From: Thermococcus guaymasensis DSM 11113
GTDB taxonomy: Archaea > Methanobacteriota_B > Thermococci > Thermococcales > Thermococcaceae
NCBI RefSeq assembly: GCF_000816105.1
Contig: NZ_CP007140.1
Location: 558,001 to 622,000, forward strand
Reading direction: 5' to 3'
Length of the DNA: 64,000 nucleotides
The notes under the pieces were generated by a model. The model saw only the letters and a list, made by a program, of their open reading frames with translations. It was not told the DNA's origin and searched no databases. Below, one piece after another: positions 18,337 to 52,233 of the stretch (the first letter of the stretch is position 1; the number at the start of each line of letters is the position of its first letter). Position numbers and translations under genes: made by a program.

Positions 18337-18831
18337 ATGTTCAGCGGTAGAGCGCTTATACCAGTGAAGATCATCAAGCCCTTTGAGGACTGGAACACCG
18401 GCGATATAGCGCTTATGGAGGACTGGAAGGCCAAAGTGCTCTGGGAGGCGGGGATAGGAGAGATAGTCGACGAGACCGATAAGATTATTGGCGAGATAGA
18501 CAAAGTAATAGCTGAAGAGCGAGAGAGCCAGCCCCTTGTGCCGATTCCGGCGGGGCTCTATGAAAGGGCCGAGTTTTACATGTACTACCTGGAGAACTAC
18601 GTGAGACAGAACCCGGGCGAGAGCATTGAAGTGTTGAGTGTGAAGATGACCAAGCTCGCAAATCTCAAGAAGAAGTACCGCTACCTGAAGGAGATGCGCT
18701 TTAAGAAGATACTTGAGGCCGTAAGGCTCAGGCCAAACAGCCTTGAAGTCCTTGGAAGGCTCTCCCCCGAAGAGAGGAGGATCTACCTGGAACTATCTAG
18801 AATCAGGAACGAGTGGTTGGGTGAGGAATGA
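18337..18831 (+). CDS. gins23: GINS complex subunit Gins23
   Basis: 164 residues. The N-terminal strand-rich B domain (LIPVKIIKPFEDWNTGDIAL) precedes the helical A domain (LVPIPAGLYERAEFYMYYLE ... LANLKKKYRYLKEMRFKKIL), the order expected of the Psf2/Psf3-type archaeal subunit rather than Gins51. It lies directly before mcm, as in other Thermococcales where Gins23 sits with MCM and Gins51 with PCNA. It overlaps mcm by the ATGATG arrangement at 18828-18831. With Gins51 it forms the GINS tetramer that activates MCM at the fork. Confidence 0.88.
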   Translation: MFSGRALIPVKIIKPFEDWNTGDIALMEDWKAKVLWEAGIGEIVDETDKIIGEIDKVIAEERESQPLVPIPAGLYERAEFYMYYLENYVRQNPGESIEVLSVKMTKLANLKKKYRYLKEMRFKKILEAVRLRPNSLEVLGRLSPEERRIYLELSRIRNEWLGEE

Positions 18832-21800
18832 TGGATAGAGAAGACATGATATCACGCTTCGCTACGTTCCTCCGCGAGTATAAGGATGACGATGGGAATC
18901 CGGTTTACCTTAACCGCCTAAAGGATCTTATCACCGTGGTTCCAAGGAGGTCTCTCCGCATAGACTGGGCCCATCTCAACTCCTTCGACCCGGAGCTTGC
19001 GCAGGAGCTCCTCGAAAACCCAGAGGAAGTCCTGATGGCAGGAGAAGACGCTATTCAGATAGTCCTGAGAGAGGACCTCATGTATTCAGAAGAGTTCAAG
19101 GTACACGCGAGGTTTTACAACCTGCCCCACACTCTCCTCGTTAAGGAACTTGGAAGCGAGCACATAAACCGGCTCATACAGGTCGAGGGCATCATCACGC
19201 GTATTAGCGAGGTCAAGCCCTTCGTCCAGAGGGCGGTCTTTGTTTGTAAGGACTGCGGAAACGAGATGGTAAGGCTTCAGAGGCCCTATGAGAACCTTGT
19301 CAAGCCAGCTAAATGCGACGCCTGCGGAAGCAGAAACATTGAGCTCGATGTCGATAAGAGCCGCTTCATAAACTTCCAGAGCTTCCGCCTCCAGGACAGG
19401 CCCGAGAGCCTCAAGGGCGGACAGATGCCGAGGTTCGTTGACGCAATACTCTTGGATGACCTCGTCGATACTGCCCTTCCCGGCGACCGCGTTCTGGTCA
19501 CAGGAATCCTGCGCGTTATCCTTGAGCAGAGGGACAAGAGGCCGATCTTCAAGAAAGTCCTCGAGGTCAACCACATCGAACAGCTCAGTAAGGAGATAGA
19601 GGAGCTTGAGATTACCCCAGAGGACGAGCAGAAGATACGCGAGCTGGCCAAGAGGAAAGACATCGTGGACGCGATAGTTGACTCGATAGCCCCCGCAATC
19701 TGGGGGCATAAAATTGTGAAGAAGGGCATCGCGCTGGCCCTCTTCGGCGGTGTGCCGAGGGTTCTTCCGGACGGAACTAAGCTTCGCGGTGAGAGCCACG
19801 TCCTGCTCGTTGGAGATCCGGGAGTGGCAAAGTGCGTTGATTACCATACGAAGGTTCTCCTCGCAGATGGTAGTCTAGAGGAAATTGGTGATGTCGTTGA
19901 GGACGCCATTGAAAAGGCCAAAGCTGAAGGAACGCTCGGAAGGGTTGAGGATGGCTTCTACGCGCCGATTGACATCGAACTCTACGCTCTCGACGCGAAA
20001 GCACTGAAGGTCAGGAGAGTTAAGGCGAACATCGCCTGGAAGAGAAAAGCTCCGAACAGGATGTTCAGAATAAAGACCGCGAGCGGGCGCGAAATCCGCG
20101 TAACTCCTACTCACCCGTTCTTCACCTTTGAAAACGGGCAGTTCAAAACAAGAAAAGCGAAAGAGCTTAAGATTGGCGATTTTGTGGCCGTGCCAAGAGT
20201 AGTTCCTGTTGATGGAGAAGCCGTTAGGCTCTCAGAGGTTCCCGTTGAGAAACCGAGAACAGCAAAAGCGAGGCTTAAACTTCCAAAGACTGCCGACGAG
20301 AAGTTCTGGTATCTAATCGGGCTGTTTGTTGGAGAAGGGTATTCCCAAAACAGGGAGGGCAGTGCAACGGTGTACTTCACGAACAACGATGAGCAGTTGA
20401 TACGATTTGTTTATGACTACCTCAAGAGCCTTGGCCTTAACCCAACTATTCGCGAGCCTCACAAGGGCAAGAGTGCATGGGAAGTCTACGTGAGTAGCGT
20501 TGAATTCTACCGTTTGCTTGAGTGGTTGGGTATTGCATCGAACTCAAAGAGTAAGAGAGTCCCACCGCAACTTTTCAGGGCAAGACTGGAGGACATTAGG
20601 GCCTTCCTAAGAGGTTACTTTGATGCTGAAGGCACAGTTGACAAAAATAGGGCCAAGATAACAGTGGTTTCTGCTTCGGAGGAGCTTCTTAGGGGTGTTC
20701 AGCACCTTCTCCTCAGATTTGGGATAAAATCCCAGATACATGAGACTAAAGCTCGCGCGACCAACGGTAAAATGAAAGCCCCAAGAACATACTACAGGCT
20801 GTTCATTACCGGAGAAGACTCGATTAAGTTCAGAGAGGAGATTGGCTTTGGTCTCAGGACTAAAATGGATGCTCTAAAACGTGTAACATCCAACGGAAAA
20901 ACAAACACTAACGTTGACATTGTTCCAGGAGTTGGTCAATTGTTAAGACATCTCCGCATCAAAGCAGGACTGACGCAGGCTCAGATGGGTATAAGCAGAT
21001 CAACTTACCTGCACTATGAGCGGGGAGACCGGCTTCCAAGCAGAGAAAAGCTCAAGGCCATCACTGAAATCCTCAAAACAAAACTACCTGACTCACCAGA
21101 AGTTGACCTCTTGGTTGCTCTTTCGGACTCCGACATCTTCTGGGACCGGGTAGTGGAGATTGAGGAATATAAACCGGAGCACGAGTGGGTCTACGACCTC
21201 CAGGTTCCGGAACACCACAACTTCATTGCCAACGACATCTTTGTCCACAACAGCCAGCTCCTCCGCTACGTGGCCAATTTAGCGCCGAGGGCGATTTATA
21301 CGAGCGGTAAGAGCTCAAGCGCCGCCGGTTTGACGGCCGCAGCCGTGCGCGACGAGTTCACCGGCTCGTGGGTTCTGGAAGCCGGTGTTCTGGTGTTGGC
21401 GGATGGAGGCTTTGCCTGCCTGCATCCTGATTCGAGGGTTCTCGCCGATGGAAAGTATGTCCGCATCGAAGACCTCTTTGAGCTGGAGAAGTCCTACAAG
21501 GCCCTCTCCGACGGCCAGATCGTGGACATTCAGGAGAAGGAGATGGAGGTCACTTCCCTCAACCTCGGAAGCATGAGGACGAAGACATCTAAAGCCACGA
21601 TAATTCGCAGGAAACCCTGGAAGGGCGAGCTACTCAGGCTGAAGTTCCGCTCGGGCAACGAGGTAACCCTAACCCCAGACCATCTCCTCATAGATGGCCA
21701 GACCTTCGAGTGGAAGGAGGCAGAGAGGTTCAAGGTTGGCGATATGGTGGTTGCCCCGCTGAAGCTTCCAGCAGTGGGGAGAAAAGTGTACCTGCTCGAT

Positions 21801-24800
21801 ATTCTGCCCTCGGACTGGAAGGTCAAGCTGACCCCCGAAGAAAAGAACGAGCTGAAGGGAGAAATCCTCAGAAGATTCAAGAGCCTCGCGGAGTTCAACA
21901 GGAAGTACGACATCTCAAAGGACTTCCTCTCAGGGAAGGGTTCTATCCGCGTCGGGAAGTTCAGGGAGATACTGCATGAGCTGGGACTCTACGAGAAGTG
22001 GCGCGAGAGGCCTCTAACCTACGGCCCAAACTACCGCAGGGAGCGCCTTAAAGTGACCTACATAACGCCGGAGCTTGCGTACTTCCTCGGATTCCTCTAC
22101 GGCGACGGGTGGATAAAGAGGAACGGTTCCAAGGTTCACGTTCGCATCGTGCAGTCGAAGGTTCACAAGGACCAAATTAGGGCAATCAGGCGGGCATTTG
22201 AGAGCTTCTACGACGAACCGTTAAGGGAGTACGAGAGAACCACGAGGAGCAAGCTTGCGGGTAATGAGATAACGAGTGACACGATAACGTTCCACGTTAG
22301 CTCGCCCCTGCTTGCCTACCTGTACGAGTACCTCACCGAGAACAACCTGAAAAATACGTTCTCTCTGGACGACGAGGCATTGAAGGCGTTTATCGCGGGT
22401 GCACTCGACTCGGACGGCTGTGTTTCGGTTAAGAAGAGCGAGAGGGGAAGTGTGGTCCACATAGAATTTCTGCTCTCAAATGATTTGGAAAGTGACAAAG
22501 CCTTTGCACTGCTCCTCAGGAGGTTTGACATATACGCCCGCGTGATTCCAGGGAAAGGTGTGAACAAGATTAGGGTAACTGGGAGGGAGGACGTGACAAA
22601 CCTCCTCAACGCGGTTAAGGATTACAGCGTTAAGGTCAAGGAGATACCCACTAAAAAGCATCTCGTCTCGGCGAGGAGCGACAAAGTGCCGGCAGAACCC
22701 GTTAGGAGAATCGCAAAAGCTATTATCAAGAGCGTTCCGGCCAAAGTACTGCAGGAGAGAGGGCTCTGGAGTACCGTTTATTCCTATGCCGGGGGCAAGT
22801 ATCAGCCCAGCAGGATTCAGCTAAGAAAAATCGTTGAAAGGCTTGGCGATGTTCTTACTCCAGAAATACGGCTTAAGCTCGAAGTCCTTGCCACGAGGGA
22901 CTACTTCCTCGATGAAATCGTCTCCATCGAGCGCGTTCCCTACGAGGGCTATGTCTATGACCTCTACGTGCCGGGTGAGCACAACTTCCTGGCCGAGGGA
23001 ATCATCGTCCACAACTGCATCGACGAGTTCGACAAGATGAGCGACCGCGACAGGAGCGCGATACACGAGGCGCTGGAACAGCAGAGCTACCACCACGACT
23101 TTGAGCTTCTCTTAGCTGACGGCAGGAAGGTGAAGATAGGCGAGCTGGTCGATTCGCTTATCGAGGCCAACCGCGATAAGGTAATACTCGGCAGGGACAC
23201 CGAAATCCTGCCGGTTGATGAGATAGAGGTGCTCGCCTACGACCTTGAAAAGAAGGAAGTGGTCAAGGTCAAGGCCAACCGCGTGAGCAGGCACAAGGCT
23301 CCGGAGAAGTTCATACGGCTGAGGTTCTCGAACGGCAGGGAGATAGTTGTCACACCCGAACACCCGATCATGGTGTGGGAGAACGGTGAAATAAGAGAGA
23401 AGCCGGCGGAGAAGGTCACCGTGGACGATGTCGTGCTCGGAGTTGCGAGGTACCCCATTGAGATCGAGCAGCCCGGCGAACCGCTCAGGGACGAGAGGGC
23501 CGCTTGGAACAGGCAGGACTACCTCTACTCCCTCGGGATAGTGTCTAAGATTAAAAAGGCCCCCGGCCGCTACGAGGTGGCACCCACAGAGAGAACCTTT
23601 CCAGGAGAACTCCTAAAAATGCTTAGAGATGCGGGAAAAGAACTGCGCTTCAAGCTCTCCAAGTGGTACCCCGCGAGAAAGCCCCTCGTTCCAGAGAAAC
23701 TCCTGAGAGAGGAAATACAGAGGCTTAAGGATCACATCAAGCACGTCAGGGAAGTCGCCGAGAAAGAGCCCTCCAAAGCCCTCAACTACCTTATCAAATC
23801 AAAGATTGCCTCCAAATATGGCCTTACCTCCCAGACCCTCGAACACTGGGTAGCTAGGGGAGAGCAGCTCGCCCTCTCAATAGTAAAGAACGAAGTGGAG
23901 AAGACTGCAGAAAGGATCGAAGAGGCCATAAAAAACGTGGAAGAGCTTCTAGATGGCAATGTCAACTTCCTTGAGGTAAAAAAGGTCGAAGAGATCCCCA
24001 ATGAGGGTTGGGAGTGGGTCTACGACGTAACCGTCGAGCCGTACCACCTTTTCGTCTCCCACGGGCTCGTTCTCCACAACACGATAAGCATCTCCAAGGC
24101 CGGGATTACGGCGACGCTCAACGCGAGGACTACAGTTATAGCCGCCGCCAACCCGAAGTTCGGCCGCTTCAATCGCATGAAGTCCCTTCCAGAACAGCTC
24201 GACCTGCCGCCGACCCTGCTGAGCAGGTTTGACCTCATATTCCTCCTGCTCGATGAACCAGACGAAAAAATCGACGCGAGCATAGCGGAGCACATCCTCA
24301 AAGTGAGGAGGGGAGAGGCCGAGGTCGTCACGCCGAAGATACCCTACGACCTTCTCAAGAAGTACATAGCCTACGCGAGGAAAAACGTCCACCCAGTCCT
24401 CAGCAGGGAAGCGATGGAGGAGATAAAGCGCTACTACGTCAAGATGAGAAAGAGTTTGAAGAGGGGCAACGAAGAGGGCGTCCAGCCGATTCCAATAACC
24501 GCGAGACAGCTTGAGGCCCTCATACGTCTAAGCGAGGCCCACGCAAGGATGCGCCTCAGCGAGACGGTAACGCGCGAAGATGCCAGGGCAGCGATAGAGC
24601 TCATCGAGGCAATGATGAGAACCATAGCGGTGGACGAGGAAGGCAACATCGACGTCTCGATCCTGGAGGTAGGAAAGAGCTCGAAGAAGCTCAACAAGAT
24701 AGAGAAGCTAGTCGATATAATCAAGAACCTCGAGCCGGAGGGCGAATACGGAGCACCGGCCGACAAGGTGATAGAAGCAGCAAAACAGGCAGGAGTTGGA

Positions 24801-24890
24801 AGCAAGCGCGAGGTGGAGAAGCTCATCGAGGAACTGAAGGCAGATGGCAGAATCTACGAGCCAAGGGCTGGCTTTTACAGGGTGCTCTAA
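18828..24890 (+). CDS. mcm: MCM replicative helicase precursor with three inteins
   Basis: 2020 codons; removing inteins at residues 336-808, 864-1396 and 1420-1751 leaves a 682-residue MCM, normal archaeal length. The N-terminal domain has a zinc site (CKDCG ... CDACG). The motor contains Walker A GDPGVAK/S (split by intein 1), Walker B LADGGFA/CIDEFDKM (split by intein 2), HEALEQQ/TISISKAG (split by intein 3), sensor 1 IAAANPKFGRF and the Arg-finger region LLSRFDLIF. A C-terminal winged helix ends the protein. It unwinds DNA 3'-5' at replication forks. All three splicing events would be needed to make the ATPase. It is coupled to gins23 upstream. Confidence 0.97.
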   Translation: MMDREDMISRFATFLREYKDDDGNPVYLNRLKDLITVVPRRSLRIDWAHLNSFDPELAQELLENPEEVLMAGEDAIQIVLREDLMYSEEFKVHARFYNLPHTLLVKELGSEHINRLIQVEGIITRISEVKPFVQRAVFVCKDCGNEMVRLQRPYENLVKPAKCDACGSRNIELDVDKSRFINFQSFRLQDRPESLKGGQMPRFVDAILLDDLVDTALPGDRVLVTGILRVILEQRDKRPIFKKVLEVNHIEQLSKEIEELEITPEDEQKIRELAKRKDIVDAIVDSIAPAIWGHKIVKKGIALALFGGVPRVLPDGTKLRGESHVLLVGDPGVAKCVDYHTKVLLADGSLEEIGDVVEDAIEKAKAEGTLGRVEDGFYAPIDIELYALDAKALKVRRVKANIAWKRKAPNRMFRIKTASGREIRVTPTHPFFTFENGQFKTRKAKELKIGDFVAVPRVVPVDGEAVRLSEVPVEKPRTAKARLKLPKTADEKFWYLIGLFVGEGYSQNREGSATVYFTNNDEQLIRFVYDYLKSLGLNPTIREPHKGKSAWEVYVSSVEFYRLLEWLGIASNSKSKRVPPQLFRARLEDIRAFLRGYFDAEGTVDKNRAKITVVSASEELLRGVQHLLLRFGIKSQIHETKARATNGKMKAPRTYYRLFITGEDSIKFREEIGFGLRTKMDALKRVTSNGKTNTNVDIVPGVGQLLRHLRIKAGLTQAQMGISRSTYLHYERGDRLPSREKLKAITEILKTKLPDSPEVDLLVALSDSDIFWDRVVEIEEYKPEHEWVYDLQVPEHHNFIANDIFVHNSQLLRYVANLAPRAIYTSGKSSSAAGLTAAAVRDEFTGSWVLEAGVLVLADGGFACLHPDSRVLADGKYVRIEDLFELEKSYKALSDGQIVDIQEKEMEVTSLNLGSMRTKTSKATIIRRKPWKGELLRLKFRSGNEVTLTPDHLLIDGQTFEWKEAERFKVGDMVVAPLKLPAVGRKVYLLDILPSDWKVKLTPEEKNELKGEILRRFKSLAEFNRKYDISKDFLSGKGSIRVGKFREILHELGLYEKWRERPLTYGPNYRRERLKVTYITPELAYFLGFLYGDGWIKRNGSKVHVRIVQSKVHKDQIRAIRRAFESFYDEPLREYERTTRSKLAGNEITSDTITFHVSSPLLAYLYEYLTENNLKNTFSLDDEALKAFIAGALDSDGCVSVKKSERGSVVHIEFLLSNDLESDKAFALLLRRFDIYARVIPGKGVNKIRVTGREDVTNLLNAVKDYSVKVKEIPTKKHLVSARSDKVPAEPVRRIAKAIIKSVPAKVLQERGLWSTVYSYAGGKYQPSRIQLRKIVERLGDVLTPEIRLKLEVLATRDYFLDEIVSIERVPYEGYVYDLYVPGEHNFLAEGIIVHNCIDEFDKMSDRDRSAIHEALEQQSYHHDFELLLADGRKVKIGELVDSLIEANRDKVILGRDTEILPVDEIEVLAYDLEKKEVVKVKANRVSRHKAPEKFIRLRFSNGREIVVTPEHPIMVWENGEIREKPAEKVTVDDVVLGVARYPIEIEQPGEPLRDERAAWNRQDYLYSLGIVSKIKKAPGRYEVAPTERTFPGELLKMLRDAGKELRFKLSKWYPARKPLVPEKLLREEIQRLKDHIKHVREVAEKEPSKALNYLIKSKIASKYGLTSQTLEHWVARGEQLALSIVKNEVEKTAERIEEAIKNVEELLDGNVNFLEVKKVEEIPNEGWEWVYDVTVEPYHLFVSHGLVLHNTISISKAGITATLNARTTVIAAANPKFGRFNRMKSLPEQLDLPPTLLSRFDLIFLLLDEPDEKIDASIAEHILKVRRGEAEVVTPKIPYDLLKKYIAYARKNVHPVLSREAMEEIKRYYVKMRKSLKRGNEEGVQPIPITARQLEALIRLSEAHARMRLSETVTREDARAAIELIEAMMRTIAVDEEGNIDVSILEVGKSSKKLNKIEKLVDIIKNLEPEGEYGAPADKVIEAAKQAGVGSKREVEKLIEELKADGRIYEPRAGFYRVL
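19833..21251 (+). other. Intein 1 of MCM (Walker A site) with LAGLIDADG endonuclease
   Basis: 473 residues (336-808 of the precursor). The N-terminal block is CVDYHTKVLLADGS, block B is VTPTHPFF, and the C-terminal blocks are VYDLQVPEHHNF and DIFVHN, followed by extein Ser. Two LAGLIDADG-like motifs, LIGLFVGEGYS and LRGYFDAEGTV, mark a homing endonuclease. A helix-turn-helix of Cro/C1 type follows (LRIKAGLTQAQMGISRSTYL). The site corresponds to the known CDC21-a type insertion in Thermococcales MCM proteins. Confidence 0.93.
21417..23015 (+). other. Intein 2 of MCM (Walker B site) with LAGLIDADG endonuclease
   Basis: 533 residues (864-1396). It begins CLHPDSRVLADGKYVRIEDL, with block B in LTPDHLLIDG, and ends VYDLYVPGEHNF ... 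IIVHN before extein Cys of CIDEFDKM. LAGLIDADG motifs are LAYFLGFLYGDGWIK and LKAFIAGALDSDGCV. The site corresponds to the known CDC21-b type. An extra region of about 140 residues sits between block B and the first endonuclease motif and may bind DNA. Confidence 0.93.
23085..24080 (+). other. Intein 3 of MCM, N-terminal Ser, no LAGLIDADG motifs
   Basis: 332 residues (1420-1751), inserted after HEALEQQ and before TISISKAG. It starts with Ser (SYHHDFELLLADG) rather than Cys, has block B in VTPEHPIMVW, and ends VYDVTVEPYHLF ... LVLHN before extein Thr. No LAGLIDADG or HNH motif is visible. In place of an endonuclease there is a charged helical insert of about 200 residues that includes a helix-turn-helix-like stretch (IASKYGLTSQTLEHWVARG). 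Splicing would need Ser at position 1 and Thr at +1, both competent nucleophiles. Confidence 0.9.
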
Positions 24891-25380: not shown

Positions 25381-25435
25381 GCCCCTTTGTGGACAAATTA
25401 TCCACTCTTGGATGAAATTCCGCTCCTCAAAAACC

Positions 25436-46293: not shown

Positions 46294-46298
46294 GTAGT

Positions 46299-48074
46299 CT
46301 TTCAATTCTCCCAGAGTCTTATTGCAACGCACGTGAGAAACTACCGTTTGGCAAAGCCCCACGCTTTCAATTCTCCCAGAGTCTTATTGCAACAAGCCAA
46401 ACTTCCTGTTTAACCCCCGAAACAAAGCTAACTTTCAATTCTCCCAGAGTCTTATTGCAACTGGCCTTGGCTACGCCTACAAGGTTTACAACGAAAAGCT
46501 TTCAATTCTCCCAGAGTCTTATTGCAACCCGTGTCAAAGTCATCAAAGAACTCGAACACTTGCTCTTTCAATTCTCCTAGAGTCTTATTGCAACCGGGAG
46601 GGATTATTTGCATGTCGGGCTCTGGTTCCTCCTTTCAATTCTCCTAGAGTCTTATTGCAACGTTGTACTTGGGTCGTGGTCTGGGACTGAGACTGACCTT
46701 TCAATTCTCCTAGAGTCTTATTGCAACCGATGCCCGCGCCAACGAAGAGCTTGAAGTACGCTCTGTAAACTTTCAATTCTCCTAGAGTCTTATTGCAACA
46801 GCACACCGAATCGCCACGGCCATCACGCTCCACCACTTTCAATTCTCCTAGAGTCTTATTGCAACCGGACGATAAGGGGCTGGAGTATGATTACTACCTC
46901 AGCTTTCAATTCTCCTAGAGTCTTATTGCAACTCCCTGTCCACAATCGTGGGGGTGGTTAATGTCCCCGCTTTCAATTCTCCTAGAGTCTTATTGCAACG
47001 TTTGGAACGCGGTAAATGTGGATTGGTGATAACAACTTTCAATTCTCCTAGAGTCTTATTGCAACAATCAGCGCTTAGGATTTTAGCTAACGCGTCTTTG
47101 ACTTTCAATTCTCCTAGAGTCTTATTGCAACCCTCAAACATAGTGGCAAGCTCGTGGTAGAAACCCCCTTTCAATTCTCCTAGAGTCTTATTGCAACTAA
47201 GCACAGCGCGGTCCTTGTGGGCCTTCTGGAAAAACTTTCAATTCTCCTAGAGTCTTATTGCAACCTGCAAGCGGGACGATGAAAATCACGATAAAGAGGG
47301 TTGGCTTTCAATTCTCCTAGAGTCTTATTGCAACTCACCCCACCGTCGCGTATTGCACCACCAACCCGACTCTTTCAATTCTCCTAGAGTCTTATTGCAA
47401 CATCCAAAACCCTAATAGCACATTACCAAGAGATTTTCTTTCAATTCTCCTAGAGTCTTATTGCAACCTTTAACTTCCCTCCATAAAGTATCCAATAAAT
47501 ATTCTTGGCTTTCAATTCTCCTAGAGTCTTATTGCAACCCAAAACAGGGAAAAAGAAAAGCAGGAATGTAAGCTCTTTCAATTCTCCTAGAGTCTTATTG
47601 CAACCCCCGCCGTATCATCCTTTACCTTCCACTGATTCTCCTCCTTTCAATTCTCCTAGAGTCTTATTGCAACATATGCTCATAAGGCTCGACGGTCGGC
47701 GGGTTGGATGCTTTCAATTCTCCTAGAGTCTTATTGCAACACGCGGTACGCAATACCTCCGCACGGCCCTTCCCCCTCCTCACTTTCAATTCTCCTAGAG
47801 TCTTATTGCAACCTCGATCTTGATGTATATCTCCGTCCCCTTTGCGATCTTTCAATTCTCCTAGAGTCTTATTGCAACAAATGAACAGGGTCGTAAAGTA
47901 ATCTATGTCCTCCTCTTTCAATTCTCCTAGAGTCTTATTGCAACAGATAAGCGTCAGTGGCCGCGTCAGTGCCGATCTTCCTTTCAATTCTCCTAGAGTC
48001 TTATTGCAACGTGATTATATCGAGTTTTTGATGGGCTTTTCTGCCTTTCAATTCTCCTAGAGTCTTATTGCAAC
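46299..48074 (-). CRISPR. CRISPR array, 27 repeats of 30 bp and 26 spacers
   Basis: Repeats start at 46299, 46364, 46432, 46499, 46565, 46632, 46698, 46770, 46836, 46903, 46970, 47036, 47102, 47168, 47235, 47305, 47372, 47438, 47509, 47575, 47644, 47711, 47783, 47849, 47915, 47981 and 48045. On the plus strand each runs from CTTTCAATTC to CTTATTGCAAC; on the minus strand it begins GTTGCAATAAGACTC and ends GAATTGAAAG, the thermococcal orientation. Spacers are 34-42 bp. The four left-most repeats carry CTCCCAGAG where the other 23 carry CTCCTAGAG, marking the old, leader-distal end. Transcription is therefore leftward from the leader at 48075. No cas genes lie in this window. Confidence 0.98.
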
Positions 48075-48554
48075 AGGGCGGAAAATCCGCCCGTTTCCCC
48101 AACAAAAGGCTATAAGCACTCGAATATTTAAGCTTTTCTAGAAATCTCCCCAAAAGCTGTGTGAAGAGCCGTTAGATTGGGGCTGCAAGCGGCCCCAACT
48201 GCCAAACAATCCCCTTAGAAAACCGGGGGGACACAGTGAACATCAAAGTACATGAGGTCTATCGAGCTCTAAATCGAGAGTATTCTGAGTAGTTCTTCTC
48301 CAATCTTCCACAATAATGAAAAACAGCATTTTCAACAGGGTTTAAGACCAGCAGAGGGTCAGGCTTCCCCCATTCACATTTCCGTAAAAAAATTCGTTAT
48401 AAAGATCAGCCCAAACTATAACAGAACGTTACAATATCAAAAGAGCAAAAATCGATTTCCAAAACCCGAATAAGGCCCCATCTGGCAAAATTTACGGCCA
48501 AAAACTAAAGTTTTGAAAAATAAAGTTCCTGAACGTGATACCAAGAGAAAAGGC
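48075..48554 (-). promoter_or_regulatory. CRISPR leader
   Basis: 480 bases without a credible gene between the array and the acyl-CoA synthetase gene. Read on the minus strand, a TATA-like GCTTAAATATTCG (about 48122-48134) lies about 50 bases before the first repeat, and a perfect hairpin GGGCGG-AAAAT-CCGCCC (48076-48092) directly abuts it. A second hairpin pairs 48177-48183 with 48192-48198 (TTGGGGC / GCCCCAA). The rest is A-rich with respect to the plus strand, as expected of archaeal leaders, which supply the promoter and the insertion site for new spacers. Confidence 0.8.
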
Positions 48555-49967
48555 TCAGAGCCTTCCGTTCTCCTTCAGCCACTCGCCGTACTTGACGAGG
48601 GCGTAGACTGCATCAACGCCGTCCTCGACGGTCTCGTAGACGGGGACGCCCGCTTCCTTCTCGATTCTTCTGGCGATCCTGTGCGGGTACTCGCCACCGG
48701 GAGCAACGAAGACTATCGGCTTGCCGTACTCCCTCATCCTCGCGACGGCATCAACGATTCCCTCGTCGAGGGCCGGGCTCTGGAAGAGCGCTATGACAAC
48801 TAGGACGTCAACGTTCGGGTCTTCCAGAGCATAGCGCATGGCAACCTCGTACCTGCTCGACGGGGCGTCGCCGATGATGTCTATCGGGTTCTTGTAGCTC
48901 ATGTGCTCGGGGAGCTCACCCTTCTCTATGGACTCCGCGAACTTCTTATTGGTCCCCTCACTGAGCTCGGCGAGCTTCATGCCGCTCTCAAGCAGGCCGT
49001 CGCTCATCATGACCCCTGCTCCACCGCCGTTGGTGACTATCGCCACGCGGTTGCCCTTCGCGGGCCTCTGCATGGCCAAAGCCTTGGCGTAGTTGAAGAG
49101 CTGGCGCATGCTCTTGGCGCTCAGGACGCCCGTCTGCTCGAAGGCGGCCTCGTATATTTTGAATGAGCCCGCAAGGGAGCCGGTGTGGCTCGCGGCCGCT
49201 TTTGCTCCAGCCTCAGTCCTTCCCGCCTTGAGAATGATGATGGGCTTCTTGAGCGTGACCTCCTTGGCGACGTTGAAGAACTTCCTTCCGTCCTTGACGC
49301 CCTCGATGTAGCCGGTGATGACGCCGGTTTTCGGGTCATCGCCGAGATATGCCATGAAGTCGCTCTCGTCGAGGTCGGCCATGTTACCAAGGCTGATGAA
49401 CTTGCTCATGCCTATCTCGTGGCTCGCGGCCCAGTCGAGAATTGCCGCACCGAAGGCACCGCTCTGGCTCATGAAGGCGACCTTTCCGAAGGGCGGCCTG
49501 GCCTGCCTCTCCGGCGGGTTGAAGTTGCAGTCAAAGCCGTTCTCAAGGTTGGTGACGCCGAGGCAGTTCGGGCCGACGACGCGGATGCCCCACTTCCTGG
49601 CGCGCTTCACGAGCTCCTCCTCAAGGTCGGCCCTTCCAGCTTCCTTGAAGCCGGCAGAGATAACGACGGCGCCCTTGACACCCTTCTCGCCGCACTCGTC
49701 GATGACGTCTGGGACGAACTTAGCGGGAACGGCTATGACCGCGACGTCGACTTCGTCAGGTATGTCCTTAATGTTCTTGTAAACCGGGAACTTCTTCCCG
49801 TTTATCTCGATTTCACCACCCTTGACGTTGACTGCATAGATTTTGCCATCAAACCGGAGCGTTATGGAGCGCATTATGGAGTTGCCGATCTTCCCGGGCA
49901 CGTTGGAAGCGCCTATAAGGGCGACGCTCCTGGGATAAAACAGGAAGTCAAGGTTCGGAGCCTCCAC
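48555..49967 (-). CDS. ADP-forming acyl-CoA synthetase alpha subunit
   Basis: 470 residues. I take the GTG at 49967 (VEAPNLDFLFYPRSVALIGA) because GGAGGTG precedes it and the TATA box (CTTAAATA, 50001-50008 on minus) lies 34 bases upstream; the TTG at 50000 would lie before transcription. Domains are the CoA-binding fold (FYPRSVALIGASNVPGKIGN), the succinyl-CoA ligase flavodoxin-like part with the phospho-histidine in AAASHTGSLAG, and GGAGVMMSDGLLESG. The enzyme makes ATP from acetyl- or aryl-CoA with a separate beta subunit, not present here. It is the usual energy-conserving step of thermococcal peptide and sugar fermentation. Confidence 0.92.
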   Translation of the reverse strand: MEAPNLDFLFYPRSVALIGASNVPGKIGNSIMRSITLRFDGKIYAVNVKGGEIEINGKKFPVYKNIKDIPDEVDVAVIAVPAKFVPDVIDECGEKGVKGAVVISAGFKEAGRADLEEELVKRARKWGIRVVGPNCLGVTNLENGFDCNFNPPERQARPPFGKVAFMSQSGAFGAAILDWAASHEIGMSKFISLGNMADLDESDFMAYLGDDPKTGVITGYIEGVKDGRKFFNVAKEVTLKKPIIILKAGRTEAGAKAAASHTGSLAGSFKIYEAAFEQTGVLSAKSMRQLFNYAKALAMQRPAKGNRVAIVTNGGGAGVMMSDGLLESGMKLAELSEGTNKKFAESIEKGELPEHMSYKNPIDIIGDAPSSRYEVAMRYALEDPNVDVLVVIALFQSPALDEGIVDAVARMREYGKPIVFVAPGGEYPHRIARRIEKEAGVPVYETVEDGVDAVYALVKYGEWLKENGRL

Positions 49968-50000
49968 ATTGTCCACCTCCGAAAGTTTTTCGGGAGTCAA

Positions 50001-50039: not shown

Positions 50040-50056
50040 ATGGATATTTTATCCAT
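50040..50056. promoter_or_regulatory. Perfect inverted repeat, possible operator
   Basis: ATGGATA TTT TATCCAT: seven-base arms with a three-base centre. It sits in the 235-base divergent region between the acyl-CoA synthetase gene and the HTH-DUF211-HTH cluster, about 35 bases upstream of the synthetase TATA box. A dimeric regulator could bind; which one is unknown. Confidence 0.4.
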
Positions 50057-50082
50057 ATAGATTGTCAGACAGAAAACTGCCT

Positions 50083-50095
50083 TTACATATATAAA
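50083..50095 (+). promoter_or_regulatory. TATA box of the HTH-DUF211-HTH cluster
   Basis: A TTACATATATAAA stretch with a strong TATATAAA core, about 110 bases before the first HTH start, giving a long leader in which two AGAACGTT repeats lie. Confidence 0.5.
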
Positions 50096-50157
50096 GTTAA
50101 CTGCCACAGAGTTGCCGGAACCCCGGAGTAGACACCAAAGCAAAAGAGTTAAATTCC

Positions 50158-50185
50158 AGAACGTTCAAAAAACCGTTAGAACGTT
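50158..50185 (+). promoter_or_regulatory. Two AGAACGTT copies spaced two helical turns
   Basis: AGAACGTT at 50158-50165 and again at 50178-50185, start-to-start 20 bases, in the 5' leader of the HTH gene at 50203. The core AACGTT is palindromic, as expected for a dimeric winged-helix protein. Placement downstream of the predicted transcription start suggests roadblock autoregulation; that is inference. Confidence 0.45.
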
Positions 50186-50202
50186 TAAATTGGGTGGTGG
50201 TC

Positions 50203-50778
50203 ATGGCAAAAGTGAAAGTCATAACAGACCCAGAAGTGATAAAGTTAATGCTGGAGGACACAAGGAGGAAGATACTGGCCCTGCTGAGGAACAGGGAGAT
50301 GACGATCTCTCAGCTCAGTGAGATACTGGGGAAGACACCCCAGACAGTTTACCACCACATCGAAAAGCTCAAGGAGGCAGGGCTGGTCGAGGTCAAAAGG
50401 ACAGAGATGAAAGGCAACCTCGTCGAGAAGTACTACGGGAGGACGGCCGACGCGTTCTACATCAACCTGTACCTCGGAGACGAGGAGCTCCGCTACCTCG
50501 CCCGCTCAAGGCTCAAGACCAAGCTTGACATTTTCAAGGCTCTTGGATACGAGTTCGATGATGAGGAGCTCCTAGACGTCATGGACAAACTCCTGGAGAA
50601 AGAGCACGAGTTCAAGACAGAGATATCCAAGGAGATAGAGACCAACGAGGAAGCCCTGAAGGACTTCTCTAATGAAGACATAATACACGCCATCGAGTGG
50701 CTCGCAATGGCCAAAATGGGCCGCGACAAAGAGAGTATAGAGCTCCTTCAGAAGCTCGGGAAAATACTTAAAAAGTGA
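50203..50778 (+). CDS. ArsR-type winged-helix regulator with helical C-terminal domain
   Basis: 191 residues from the ATG at 50203 (GGTGG upstream). The winged helix spans residues 5-85 (LEDTRRKILALLRNREMTIS, QLSEILGKTPQTVYHHIEKL, KEAGLVEVKRTE). The C-terminal half is helical (ELLDVMDKLLEKEHEFKTEI). No metal-binding cysteines are present, unlike SurR or ArsR. It resembles the second HTH protein at 51110, and the DUF211 gene lies between the two. Probably a sensor of an unknown ligand. Confidence 0.85.
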   Translation: MAKVKVITDPEVIKLMLEDTRRKILALLRNREMTISQLSEILGKTPQTVYHHIEKLKEAGLVEVKRTEMKGNLVEKYYGRTADAFYINLYLGDEELRYLARSRLKTKLDIFKALGYEFDDEELLDVMDKLLEKEHEFKTEISKEIETNEEALKDFSNEDIIHAIEWLAMAKMGRDKESIELLQKLGKILKK

Positions 50779-50802
50779 CGCCCAAATTGGAAGCGATGGG
50801 CC

Positions 50803-51108
50803 ATGGCAAAGGGAATAAGGCTTCTTGTCTTGGACGTTCTCAAGCCCCACCAGCCTATGGTGACTGATCTGGCCTTAGGGCTGAGCGAGCTGGAGGGTGT
50901 GGATGGAGTTAACATAACCCTTGTAGAAATAGACAAGGAAACAGAGAACGTCAAGATAACAGTCGTTGGAGATGACCTCGACTACGAAGAGATCGTTCAG
51001 ACCATAGAAGAGTTTGGAGGGGTTGTCCACAGCATCGATATGGTCGCCGCGGGAAGAAGAATAGTAGAGGAGGAAGAAACTCCCCAGGACAAGCTGGAGG
51101 AGTATTGA
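50803..51108 (+). CDS. DUF211 family protein
   Basis: 101 residues starting MAKGIRLLVLDVLKPHQPMV. It matches the DUF211 pattern (LALGLSELEGVDGVNITLVE, VVGDDLDYEEIVQTIEEFGG, VVHSIDMVAAGRRI), a ferredoxin-like fold conserved in archaea, of unknown function. It lies between two HTH regulator genes: 24 bases after the first and one base before the TTG start of the second, a fixed neighbourhood that suggests it modulates or is modulated by them. Confidence 0.88.
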   Translation: MAKGIRLLVLDVLKPHQPMVTDLALGLSELEGVDGVNITLVEIDKETENVKITVVGDDLDYEEIVQTIEEFGGVVHSIDMVAAGRRIVEEEETPQDKLEEY

Positions 51109-51109
51109 G

Positions 51110-51667
51110 TTGAGGGAAGTTCTAATCATTACCGAGGCCGAAAAGGTCAAAGCGCTCTCTGAGGAGACCAGGTTTAGGATTCTCCAGCTCCTCAGGGAGC
51201 GCCCCATGACCATTAACGAACTCAGCAACATCTTGGGAAAGGACAGAACGACAATCTACCGCCATATAAAGATGCTTGAAAACGCGGGACTCGTGGAGGA
51301 GCTCGAAACCCCGGGAAACGAGAAAATTTACGCGAGAAGCGCAAGGATTTTCCTAATAAAGGCAGACCCCGATGAGAGTGTCGAAGAGTTCAGGCAGGCG
51401 TATCTGCAGATAGAGGCGAAGAAACTCGTTCAGATCCTGGAGAAAGCAGGGTTTAAGATAAAAGATAAAGATGCCCTCGAAAAGCTAGCAAAGGAAGTTT
51501 TGAATGAGATCGAAGTAAATTCCCAACCAATAATAAAGAAAATCTCCCAGGCGGGAGTTGAACTCACTGAGATAGAGCTCTTCCACCTCCTCAACATGCT
51601 CGTATTCCTCCAGAGCTGTGAGCTTTGCGAAAAGGCAAAGGAACTCAACAAGCTACTTCAATTCTGA
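51110..51667 (+). CDS. Second winged-helix regulator
   Basis: 185 residues from a TTG at 51110, with GGAGG within the end of the DUF211 gene. The winged helix is SEETRFRILQLLRERPMTIN, ELSNILGKDRTTIYRHIKML, with the helical C-terminal part FLQSCELCEKAKELNKLLQF carrying two cysteines three apart. It is a paralogue of the HTH at 50203 by order of elements and overall length. Co-transcription with DUF211 and the first HTH is likely. Confidence 0.85.
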   Translation: MREVLIITEAEKVKALSEETRFRILQLLRERPMTINELSNILGKDRTTIYRHIKMLENAGLVEELETPGNEKIYARSARIFLIKADPDESVEEFRQAYLQIEAKKLVQILEKAGFKIKDKDALEKLAKEVLNEIEVNSQPIIKKISQAGVELTEIELFHLLNMLVFLQSCELCEKAKELNKLLQF

Positions 51668-51742
51668 GATCCGTAGGTGATCTTGCTCTTACTTATCTCA
51701 TTGTTTATGTTATTTGAAAGAAAATCTGTAACATAGCGTAAC

Positions 51743-52233
51743 AGCCCAAGCAACCCGTTCAAGGCAGTAACCTTCGTTGCGAACCACGACACGGACATAA
51801 TCCGGAACAAGTATCCTGCTTACGCCTTCATCTTCACCTACGAGAGCCAGCCGACGATATTCTACCGCGACTACGAGGAATGGCTCAACAAGGATAAGCT
51901 CAAGAACCTCACTGGATACACGACCACCTCGCCGGCGGGAGCACGAGCATAGTCTACTACGACAGCGACGAGCTGATATTCGTGAGGAACGGCTACGGCG
52001 ACAGGCCCGGGCTCATAACCTACATTAACCTCGGCAGCGACTGGGCCGAGAGGTGGGTGAACGTTGGCTCGAAGTTCGCCGGCTACACCATCCATGAATA
52101 CACTGGAAACCTCGGCGGTTGGGTCGACAGATACGTCCAGTACGACGGCTGGGTCAAACTCACAGCCCCACCCCACGATCCGGCCAACGGCTATTACGGC
52201 TACTCAGTCTGGAGCTATGCGGGACTAGGTTGA
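51743..52233 (+). pseudogene. Remnant of an alpha-amylase gene (3' third, frameshifted)
   Basis: From about 51752 the sequence encodes [20 protein letters not shown], then [20 protein letters not shown] and [12 protein letters not shown], which matches the C-terminal part of thermococcal extracellular alpha-amylases (catalytic-site region NHDT). At about 51911-51914 CTCACTGG replaces the expected CTCATCTGG, a one-base loss, after which the other frame continues: [20 protein letters not shown]-like residues (here WIHDHLAGG with [20 protein letters not shown]) to WSYAGLG and TGA at 52231-52233. The N-terminal two thirds and the signal peptide are missing, with no start codon. Not functional. 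Confidence 0.8.

What the first reader, a model, noticed from the sequence alone, without database searches (positions are those of the whole stretch)
50040..51667. HTH-DUF211-HTH cassette with its own operator-like repeats
Two paralogous winged-helix proteins flank a DUF211 protein of unknown function within 1.5 kb. Ahead of them AGAACGTT occurs twice, 20 bases apart (two turns), and ATGGATA-TTT-TATCCAT lies further up, next to the divergent acyl-CoA synthetase promoter. It looks like a self-regulated sensing unit in which DUF211 may be the ligand or signal part.
Basis: inference. Interest (0 to 1): 0.5.

Follow-up and report, generated by a model that had tools for sequence, protein, structure and literature searches.

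The report
Self-regulated ArsR–DUF211–ArsR operon in Thermococcaceae
A three-gene unit conserved across Thermococcaceae archaea, two DNA-binding switch proteins around an uncharacterised protein, carries its own dedicated control sequence and probably regulates mainly itself, while a second palindrome nearby belongs to a separate circuit that looks linked to vitamin B12.

Summary
HTH1 (50203-50778) is a PH1932-type ArsR winged-helix protein, followed by DUF211 and a diverged paralogue, HTH2; the order holds in 88 of 90 Thermococcaceae loci. The AGAACGTT pair is the core of an operator, AACGTTnAAA-N10-AACGTTnAAA, between the TATA-like box and the start codon of HTH1: a pair at exactly 20 bp in 82 of 87 promoters (the five misses are all in genus g3). 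In 94 genomes the operator pattern gave 81 matches, 78 at the cassette; reversed control 4. Best reading: HTH1 represses its own operon, and DUF211 is what the operon controls rather than its sensor. DUF211 stands in unrelated contexts in other archaea; its link to ArsR regulators in Thermococcales is already in print (PMC9425974), the operator was not found in the papers searched. The second palindrome is not part of the unit: it follows the succinyl-CoA synthetase alpha gene and recurs at methylmalonyl-CoA mutase, MeaB, NrdJ, NrdD, BtuF-like, BtuC-like and mmdA genes. It is probably the operator of the predicted cobalamin regulon, whose regulator is listed as unknown (PMC10746257). Whether HTH1 or HTH2 is that regulator is untested.

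The parts
50140..50155 (+). BRE/TATA-like core promoter of the cassette (gcaaaagagttaaatt)
   Evidence: conserved block at fixed distance from the repeats, mean 1.21 bits per column over 81 distinct promoters; promoter role inferred
50160..50169 (+). operator repeat 1, AACGTTCAAA
   Evidence: 1.51 bits per column; does not match RRCGYT at this spacing in 5 of 8 g3 promoters
50176..50190 (+). operator repeat 2, TTAGAACGTTTAAAT, expected to cover the transcription start
   Evidence: 1.68 bits per column, the best conserved block; start site inferred from TATA spacing
50203..50778 (+). HTH1: PH1932-type ArsR winged-helix protein, 191 aa, proposed autorepressor
   Evidence: 1uly/2cwe E 2.8e-94; Pfam HTH_5; DNA-binding half close to invariant in 88 orthologues
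50803..51108 (+). DUF211 protein, 101 aa, ferredoxin-like fold
   Evidence: PF02680 5.7e-38; 2raq, 3bpd, 2x3d by sequence and fold
51110..51667 (+). HTH2: diverged paralogue of HTH1, 185 aa
   Evidence: 1uly E 5.4e-18; model aligns to 1uly at Z 16.8, rmsd 5.3, 178 residues; C at both positions of a CxxC near the C-terminus in about 64 of 87
48555..50000 (-). divergent gene, ADP-forming acyl-CoA (succinyl-CoA) synthetase alpha; likely GTG start near 49967. Neighbour, not part of the cassette
   Evidence: orthology to TK1880 inferred from gene numbering and synteny
50040..50056 (.). ATGGATATTTTATCCAT dyad: putative cobalamin-regulon operator of the synthetase promoter; not part of the cassette

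Best explanation
HTH1-DUF211-HTH2 is one operon under negative autoregulation. HTH1, an ArsR-type dimer like PH1932, binds the two AACGTTnAAA sites between the TATA-like box and the ribosome-binding site and so blocks transcription initiation. Because the operator occurs about once per genome, the circuit has one main output: the amount of DUF211 plus its own regulators. A ligand, redox or metal state sensed by HTH1 and/or HTH2 would relieve repression. DUF211, which other archaea keep in other contexts, is the regulated product. Shown here: gene order, operator conservation, spacing, near-uniqueness, position. Inferred: that HTH1 is the protein that binds, that it represses, that the three genes are co-transcribed. 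Unknown: the signal, the work of HTH2, and what DUF211 does.
For: Order HTH1-DUF211-HTH2 in 88 of 90 loci. Pair at exactly 20 bp in 82 of 87 promoters. Conservation is concentrated in the two repeats (1.51 and 1.68 bits per column), the TATA block (1.21) and the ribosome-binding site (1.18); the spacer has 0.43 and the region upstream 0.19, over 81 distinct sequences. One hit in the own genome at up to 3 mismatches, reversed control 0. In 94 genomes 81 matches in 78 genomes, 78 at the cassette, against 4 for the reversed control pattern; a pattern with wrong spacing (19 bp) gives 6 matches, none at a cassette, reversed control 2. HTH1's DNA-binding half is close to invariant while HTH2 falls to 40-45% identity in some genera, as expected if HTH1 reads the site. 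In G032 HTH2 stops after ten codons while HTH1, DUF211 and the operator remain. TK1881, by its number probably HTH1, was among 14 of 87 lanes with a shift or loss of free probe in a T. kodakarensis gel-shift screen (PMC6737238, passage).
Against: No binding or expression data for this operator. In that screen only TK0271 was specific for the probe, so TK1881's effect there was not specific. In five g3 promoters repeat 1 is not recognisable. Binding by HTH2 or by an unrelated factor is not excluded. The transcription start was not mapped. Near-uniqueness rests on a pattern with at most 1 mismatch in relatives and 3 in the own genome; weaker targets with one site would be missed: the single-site pattern has 18 matches in the own genome against 6 for its reversed control, although 12 of the 14 non-cassette ones read lie inside ORFs.
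Confidence: 0.6

Rival explanations
1. Sensing unit: DUF211 binds the ligand and, by contact with HTH1/HTH2, sets their DNA binding.
For: DUF211 stands between the two regulators in 88 of 90 Thermococcaceae loci; its fold class also contains ligand- and metal-binding domains (HMA, NikR).
Against: In 30 loci read outside the family an HTH1/HTH2-like match at E 1e-3 occurs in 3, none of them next to DUF211 in the same operon. ArsR-type proteins usually sense by themselves (recalled). No interaction data.
Confidence: 0.15
2. The operator is read by HTH2 or by an HTH1-HTH2 heterodimer, one partner per repeat.
For: Two paralogues and two tandem repeats; both align to the PH1932 fold over most of their length.
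Against: HTH2 diverges strongly while the operator does not; the operator persists where HTH2 is broken (G032; a single and possibly recent case).
Confidence: 0.15
3. Another regulator (for example a global one) binds the repeats and the HTH pair acts elsewhere.
For: No direct assay links HTH1 to the site.
Against: A site found about once per genome, at this promoter, does not suit a global regulator.
Confidence: 0.1

Closest known systems
PH1932 (PDB 1uly, 2cwe), archaeal ArsR-type winged-helix protein of Pyrococcus horikoshii
   Same: HTH1 aligns over residues 3-191 at E 2.8e-94; HTH2 has the same fold.
   Different: No paper on its operator or targets was seen; of Itou et al. 2008 I saw only the title in a reference list, and PMC6316755 only names a PH1932 family (passage).
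DUF211 / PF02680 / arCOG04140 (MTH889 2raq, AF 3bpd, SSO6206 2x3d)
   Same: Sequence and fold.
   Different: In Thermococcaceae it stands between two ArsR regulators; PMC9425974 Table 3 already notes 'Linked to ArsR transcriptional regulators' for the Thermococcales-type cluster (passage).
Phr heat-shock repressor of Pyrococcus furiosus (2p4w)
   Same: Archaeal ArsR-like winged helix; matches HTH1 at 4.8e-05 and HTH2 at 5.2e-06.
   Different: Scores 30.4 and 33 bits against a Phr model cut-off of 320; Phr controls about ten or more genes (PMC10746257, passage), this operator occurs about once per genome.
Predicted cobalamin regulon CblR of Pyrococcus furiosus, for the ATGGATA dyad only
   Same: The dyad marks B12-related genes. 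PMC10746257 lists predicted cobalamin regulation by 'CblrR (unknown)' (passage).
   Different: The published consensus of its site was not seen here; the name CBL-box is recalled (Rodionov et al. 2003).

Membership tests
PH1932-type ArsR regulator (HTH1) | ArsR-type winged helix | tested here: met
   Pfam HTH_5 59.1 bits, cut-off 22
PH1932-type ArsR regulator (HTH1) | full-length match including the C-terminal half | tested here: met
   phmmer 3-191 against 1uly 4-192, 2.8e-94
ArsR/SmtB metalloregulator (HTH1, HTH2) | NCBIfam HTH_metalloreg score over its cut-off | tested here: not met
   47.7 and 49.9 bits, cut-off 55
Phr heat-shock regulator (HTH1, HTH2) | NCBIfam Phr model over its cut-off | tested here: not met
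   30.4 and 33 bits, cut-off 320
DUF211 (PF02680) | Pfam gathering score | tested here: met
   129.4 bits, cut-off 22.1
DUF211 (PF02680) | fold of the solved members | tested here: met
   3bpd Z 17.3, rmsd 2.9, 90 residues; 2x3d Z 16.7, rmsd 2.3, 88 residues
autoregulated repressor operon | conserved operator in its own core promoter | tested here: met
   82 of 87 promoters; 78 of 81 genomic matches
autoregulated repressor operon | binding by its own product and repression | not testable with these tools
   needs footprint and deletion
cobalamin-regulon operator, for the 50040 dyad | recurs at B12-related genes | tested here: met
   MCM large and small, MeaB, NrdJ, NrdD, BtuF-like, BtuC-like, CobA, mmdA; mmdA, NrdJ, BtuF and BtuC scores are under NCBIfam cut-offs, NrdJ on cut-off stretches of the gene
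cobalamin-regulon operator, for the 50040 dyad | published consensus letters (CBL-box) | not tested
   source paper not in the library; name recalled
CblR regulator (HTH1 or HTH2) | binds the TGGAYAWWWTRTCCA dyad | not testable with these tools
   no binding data

The most novel reading that the evidence does not exclude
HTH1 and/or HTH2 is the unidentified cobalamin regulator (CblR) of Thermococcales and DUF211 is a corrinoid-related partner. The cassette adjoins a dyad-controlled gene (succinyl-CoA synthetase alpha) in most loci read, and in the five loci L182-L186 (four Sulfolobales-type, one labelled Euryarchaeota) DUF211 lies near a gene read by eye as a PduO-type cobalamin adenosyltransferase. 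The cassette would regulate itself through AACGTT and B12-related genes through TGGATA-N3-TATCCA. Against: the two sites are unlike; no dyad lies within 300 bp upstream of HTH1 or 150 bp after HTH2 in the 15 loci of g2, g4 and g6; and the dyad's shape, a short palindrome with an AT-rich centre, is that described for Lrp-type regulators (PMC2995911, passages).
Probability: 0.07. Interest if true: 0.65.

Novelty: new member of a known kind. Interest (0 to 1): 0.4.

Why it matters
DUF211 (arCOG04140) is listed among widespread archaeal proteins without known function (PMC6393860, passage). A dedicated, nearly single-target repressor with a precise operator would give a handle in a genetically tractable host: find what derepresses the promoter and one has a clue to what DUF211 does. 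Separating the second palindrome from this unit also assigns succinyl-CoA synthetase alpha and mmdA to a probable B12 regulon whose regulator is still listed as unknown, which can be tested directly.

Tried and rejected
Rejected: the ATGGATA palindrome as part of the cassette. TGGA-N7-TCCA is absent within 300 bp upstream of HTH1 in all 23 loci of g2, g3, g4 and g6 and in 13 of 58 g1 and 2 of 6 g5 loci (with a narrower range gave 43 of 58 and 4 of 6). In g3, where the synthetase lies downstream of HTH2, it stands between HTH2 and the synthetase in 7 of 8 (L083 has one change). It stands upstream of 4 of 5 unlinked synthetase genes read (L207, a diverged fragment at a contig edge, lacks it).

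Rejected: a regulon for the AACGTT operator. Two-site search: 3 of 81 matches away from the cassette, one of them (G083:C149) identical in letters to that genome's own cassette site and near a contig end. Single-site search: 18 hits in the own genome against 6 for the reversed pattern; of 14 non-cassette hits read, 12 are inside ORFs and 2 between genes (L198, L199); 3 were not fetched. A small regulon of weaker sites is not excluded.

Led nowhere: fold matches of DUF211 outside its own family (ribosomal protein S6 permutants, HMA domains, Z 9-12) show only a common ferredoxin-like arrangement. CxxC in HTH2 suggests a redox or metal switch but is missing in about a quarter of 87 orthologues. 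Papers: DUF211 (3 papers), PH1932 (2), P. horikoshii winged-HTH ArsR (1), MTH889/SSO6206/COG1888/arCOG04140 (2), autoregulation in T. kodakarensis (123 papers, 20 listed), TK1880-TK1883 (4, one on bats), famine regulatory protein (441, 12 listed), Thermococcales methylmalonyl-CoA regulon (2), CBL-box/CblR (1), AACGTT with Thermococcus or Pyrococcus (1,199 holding two of the terms, 5 listed and judged by title). None listed describes the operator; subscription journals are largely not held.

My own error: one search used a spacing of 19 instead of 20 bp; it is kept only as a wrong-spacing control.

Dropped rows: of 92 DUF211 matches, two partial ones (G035, G091) were not fetched. Of the 90 loci, L077 and L079 (contig ends) and L082 (decayed copy) were dropped from the promoter count; the order count of 88 includes loci in which a contig end cuts HTH1 or HTH2 (L060, L077, L079). 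The list was cut after G024, and of the sites listed I read 25 in 20 stretches. Of the one-mismatch sites (four genomes) I read 20 in 18 new stretches.

Full report
Where it is. The window belongs to a 1.92 Mb genome (G000, C1:558001-622000) whose relatives are Thermococcaceae: PH1932 of Pyrococcus is a full-length match to HTH1, and titled Thermococcus contigs carry the same DUF211 gene. Genera are given as the tool's codes g1 to g6; that g3 is Pyrococcus is my inference.

The observation. HTH1 (50203-50778), DUF211 (50803-51108) and HTH2 (51110-51667) run in one direction with gaps of 24 and 1 bp. HTH1 and HTH2 are ArsR-type winged-helix paralogues, 35% identical; HTH1 is a PH1932 orthologue and HTH2 has the PH1932 fold (model of mean pLDDT 86.8; 1uly Z 16.8, rmsd 5.3, 178 residues). 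DUF211 matches PF02680 and the three solved members by sequence and fold.

The cassette in relatives. DUF211 was found in 90 of 94 genomes of the family, and in 74 of 74 that are at least 90% complete and at most 5% contaminated. I fetched 90 of the 92 matches. HTH1-DUF211-HTH2 stands in this order in 88 of 90 loci. The exceptions are L010 (G032), where HTH2 stops after ten codons, and L082, a decayed second copy in G015. The synthetase lies upstream and divergent in 69 loci, downstream in the same direction in 8 (all g3), and was not seen in the fetched stretch in 13.

The operator. Upstream of HTH1 an AAAAG-n-GTTAtaT block is followed by AACGTTnAAA, ten less conserved bases, AACGTTnAAAT and the ribosome-binding site. 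Of 87 promoters with enough sequence, 82 have an RRCGYT pair at exactly 20 bp; the 5 without are all in g3 (3 of 8 g3 promoters have the pair) and keep a repeat 2. Over 81 distinct promoters the repeats hold 1.51 and 1.68 bits per column, the spacer between them 0.43 and the region upstream of the TATA block 0.19. The position, downstream of the TATA-like box and over the expected transcription start, suits a repressor; the start site is inferred.

About one operator per genome. In the own genome the tandem pattern has one match at up to 3 mismatches, reversed control 0. In 94 genomes a degenerate form at up to 1 mismatch gives 81 matches in 78 genomes; 78 lie within 1.3 kb of the DUF211 match and 3 lie elsewhere. 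The reversed control gave 4 matches (G005, G078, G087, G091). The 16 genomes without a match are six incomplete ones without an intact DUF211 match, six of g3, and G045, G048, G049 and G057. The accidental wrong-spacing pattern gave 6 matches in 94 genomes, none at a cassette. Single sites in the own genome show no clear regulon.

Who binds. HTH1's DNA-binding half is close to invariant in 88 orthologues, HTH2's is not, and the operator is kept where HTH2 is broken (G032; a single and possibly recent case). This points to HTH1. The only experimental hint is that TK1881, by numbering probably HTH1 (TK1882 is arCOG04140; TK1880 is part of succinyl-CoA synthetase), was among 14 of 87 lanes that affected a trp promoter probe, and it was not specific (PMC6737238, passage).

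DUF211. In 30 loci outside Thermococcaceae its neighbours, read by eye, include DnaG (Methanobacteriaceae), formylmethanofuran formyltransferase (Methanocaldococcus), PHP-domain proteins (Archaeoglobi, Methanosarcinales), SRP19 (Methanosarcinales, DHVE2, g8) and, in Sulfolobales-type loci, a thiolation-type enzyme and a PduO-like protein. An HTH1/HTH2-like match at E 1e-3 or better occurs in 3 of these 30 stretches: L180, on the other strand, 0.6 kb away; L123 and L132, 2.4 kb away. L125, not among the 30, has one too. So DUF211 has a life without these regulators, and the tight coupling is a feature of this family. PMC9425974 (Table 3, passage) states it: 'Linked to ArsR transcriptional regulators'.

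The palindrome. TGGA-N7-TCCA lies within 300 bp upstream of HTH1 in 45 of 58 g1 and 4 of 6 g5 loci and in none of 23 others; in the narrower range (43 and 4) shuffles gave 0.3 in all. In g3 it lies between HTH2 and the synthetase in 7 of 8, next to a TATA-like box, and it stands upstream of 4 of 5 unlinked synthetase genes read. In g5 loci L211 and L213 it precedes a transporter gene (DASS family, 86.6 and 86.5 bits on part of the protein, cut-off 198.6). The pattern TGGAYAWWWTRTCCA has exact sites in 91 of 94 genomes, 1 to 6 each; the reversed control has one place in each of 2 genomes. I read 25 exact sites in 20 stretches: by family match or by eye, 24 stand beside methylmalonyl-CoA mutase large or small subunit, MeaB, mmdA or the anaerobic reductase NrdD, and 1 (L233) lies inside an unrelated ORF; L224 and L231 are assigned by synteny only. 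A further exact site, window 25390-25404, is at mmdA. Of 20 one-mismatch sites read in four genomes, 14 stand beside methylmalonyl-CoA mutase genes, MeaB, the B12-dependent reductase NrdJ, or BtuF-like, BtuC-like or CobA genes; 5 lie inside unrelated ORFs (L252, L255, L256, L263, L265) and 1 between other genes (L259). The reversed control at one mismatch had one place in three of the four genomes. MmdA, NrdJ (partial gene), BtuF and BtuC scores are under NCBIfam cut-offs; mutase, MeaB, NrdD and CobA scores are over them. This looks like a B12-related regulon. PMC10746257 (passage) names predicted cobalamin regulation by 'CblrR (unknown)' in P. furiosus. The term CBL-box and its 2003 source are recalled.

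Verdict. An ordinary kind of thing, an autoregulated archaeal ArsR operon, with an unusually clean, family-wide, nearly single-target operator that I did not find in the papers searched.

Noticed in passing
window 25390-25404 and 50040-50056: Two copies of the TGGAYA-WWW-TRTCCA dyad in this window, at mmdA (methylmalonyl-CoA decarboxylase alpha) and at the synthetase: part of a probable B12 regulon with 1-6 exact sites in 91 of 94 genomes.
   Followed up: yes
window 46298-48088: CRISPR-like array of 27 repeats (CTTTCAATTCTCCTAGAGTCTTATTGCAAC; the first four differ by one base) spaced 64-72 bp, ending about 470 bp from the synthetase stop.
   Followed up: no
window 51740-52233: Remnant that looks like a decayed alpha-amylase gene (PF09154 C-terminal domain) just after HTH2; in G019 (L009) an amylase-like reading frame starts at about the same place (by eye).
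   Followed up: partly
window 18828-24890: A 2020-aa ORF that reads like an MCM helicase interrupted by several intein-like insertions (by eye).
   Followed up: no
L010 (G032): HTH2 stops after ten codons while HTH1, DUF211 and the operator remain: a natural HTH2 loss.
   Followed up: partly
L182-L186: DUF211 is followed by a tRNA-thiolation-like gene and a convergent PduO-like cobalamin adenosyltransferase in all five loci (by eye).
   Followed up: no
L211, L213 (genus g5): A DASS-type anion transporter gene with the dyad just before its start codon lies between HTH1 and the synthetase; in L212 the same stretch looks decayed.
   Followed up: partly
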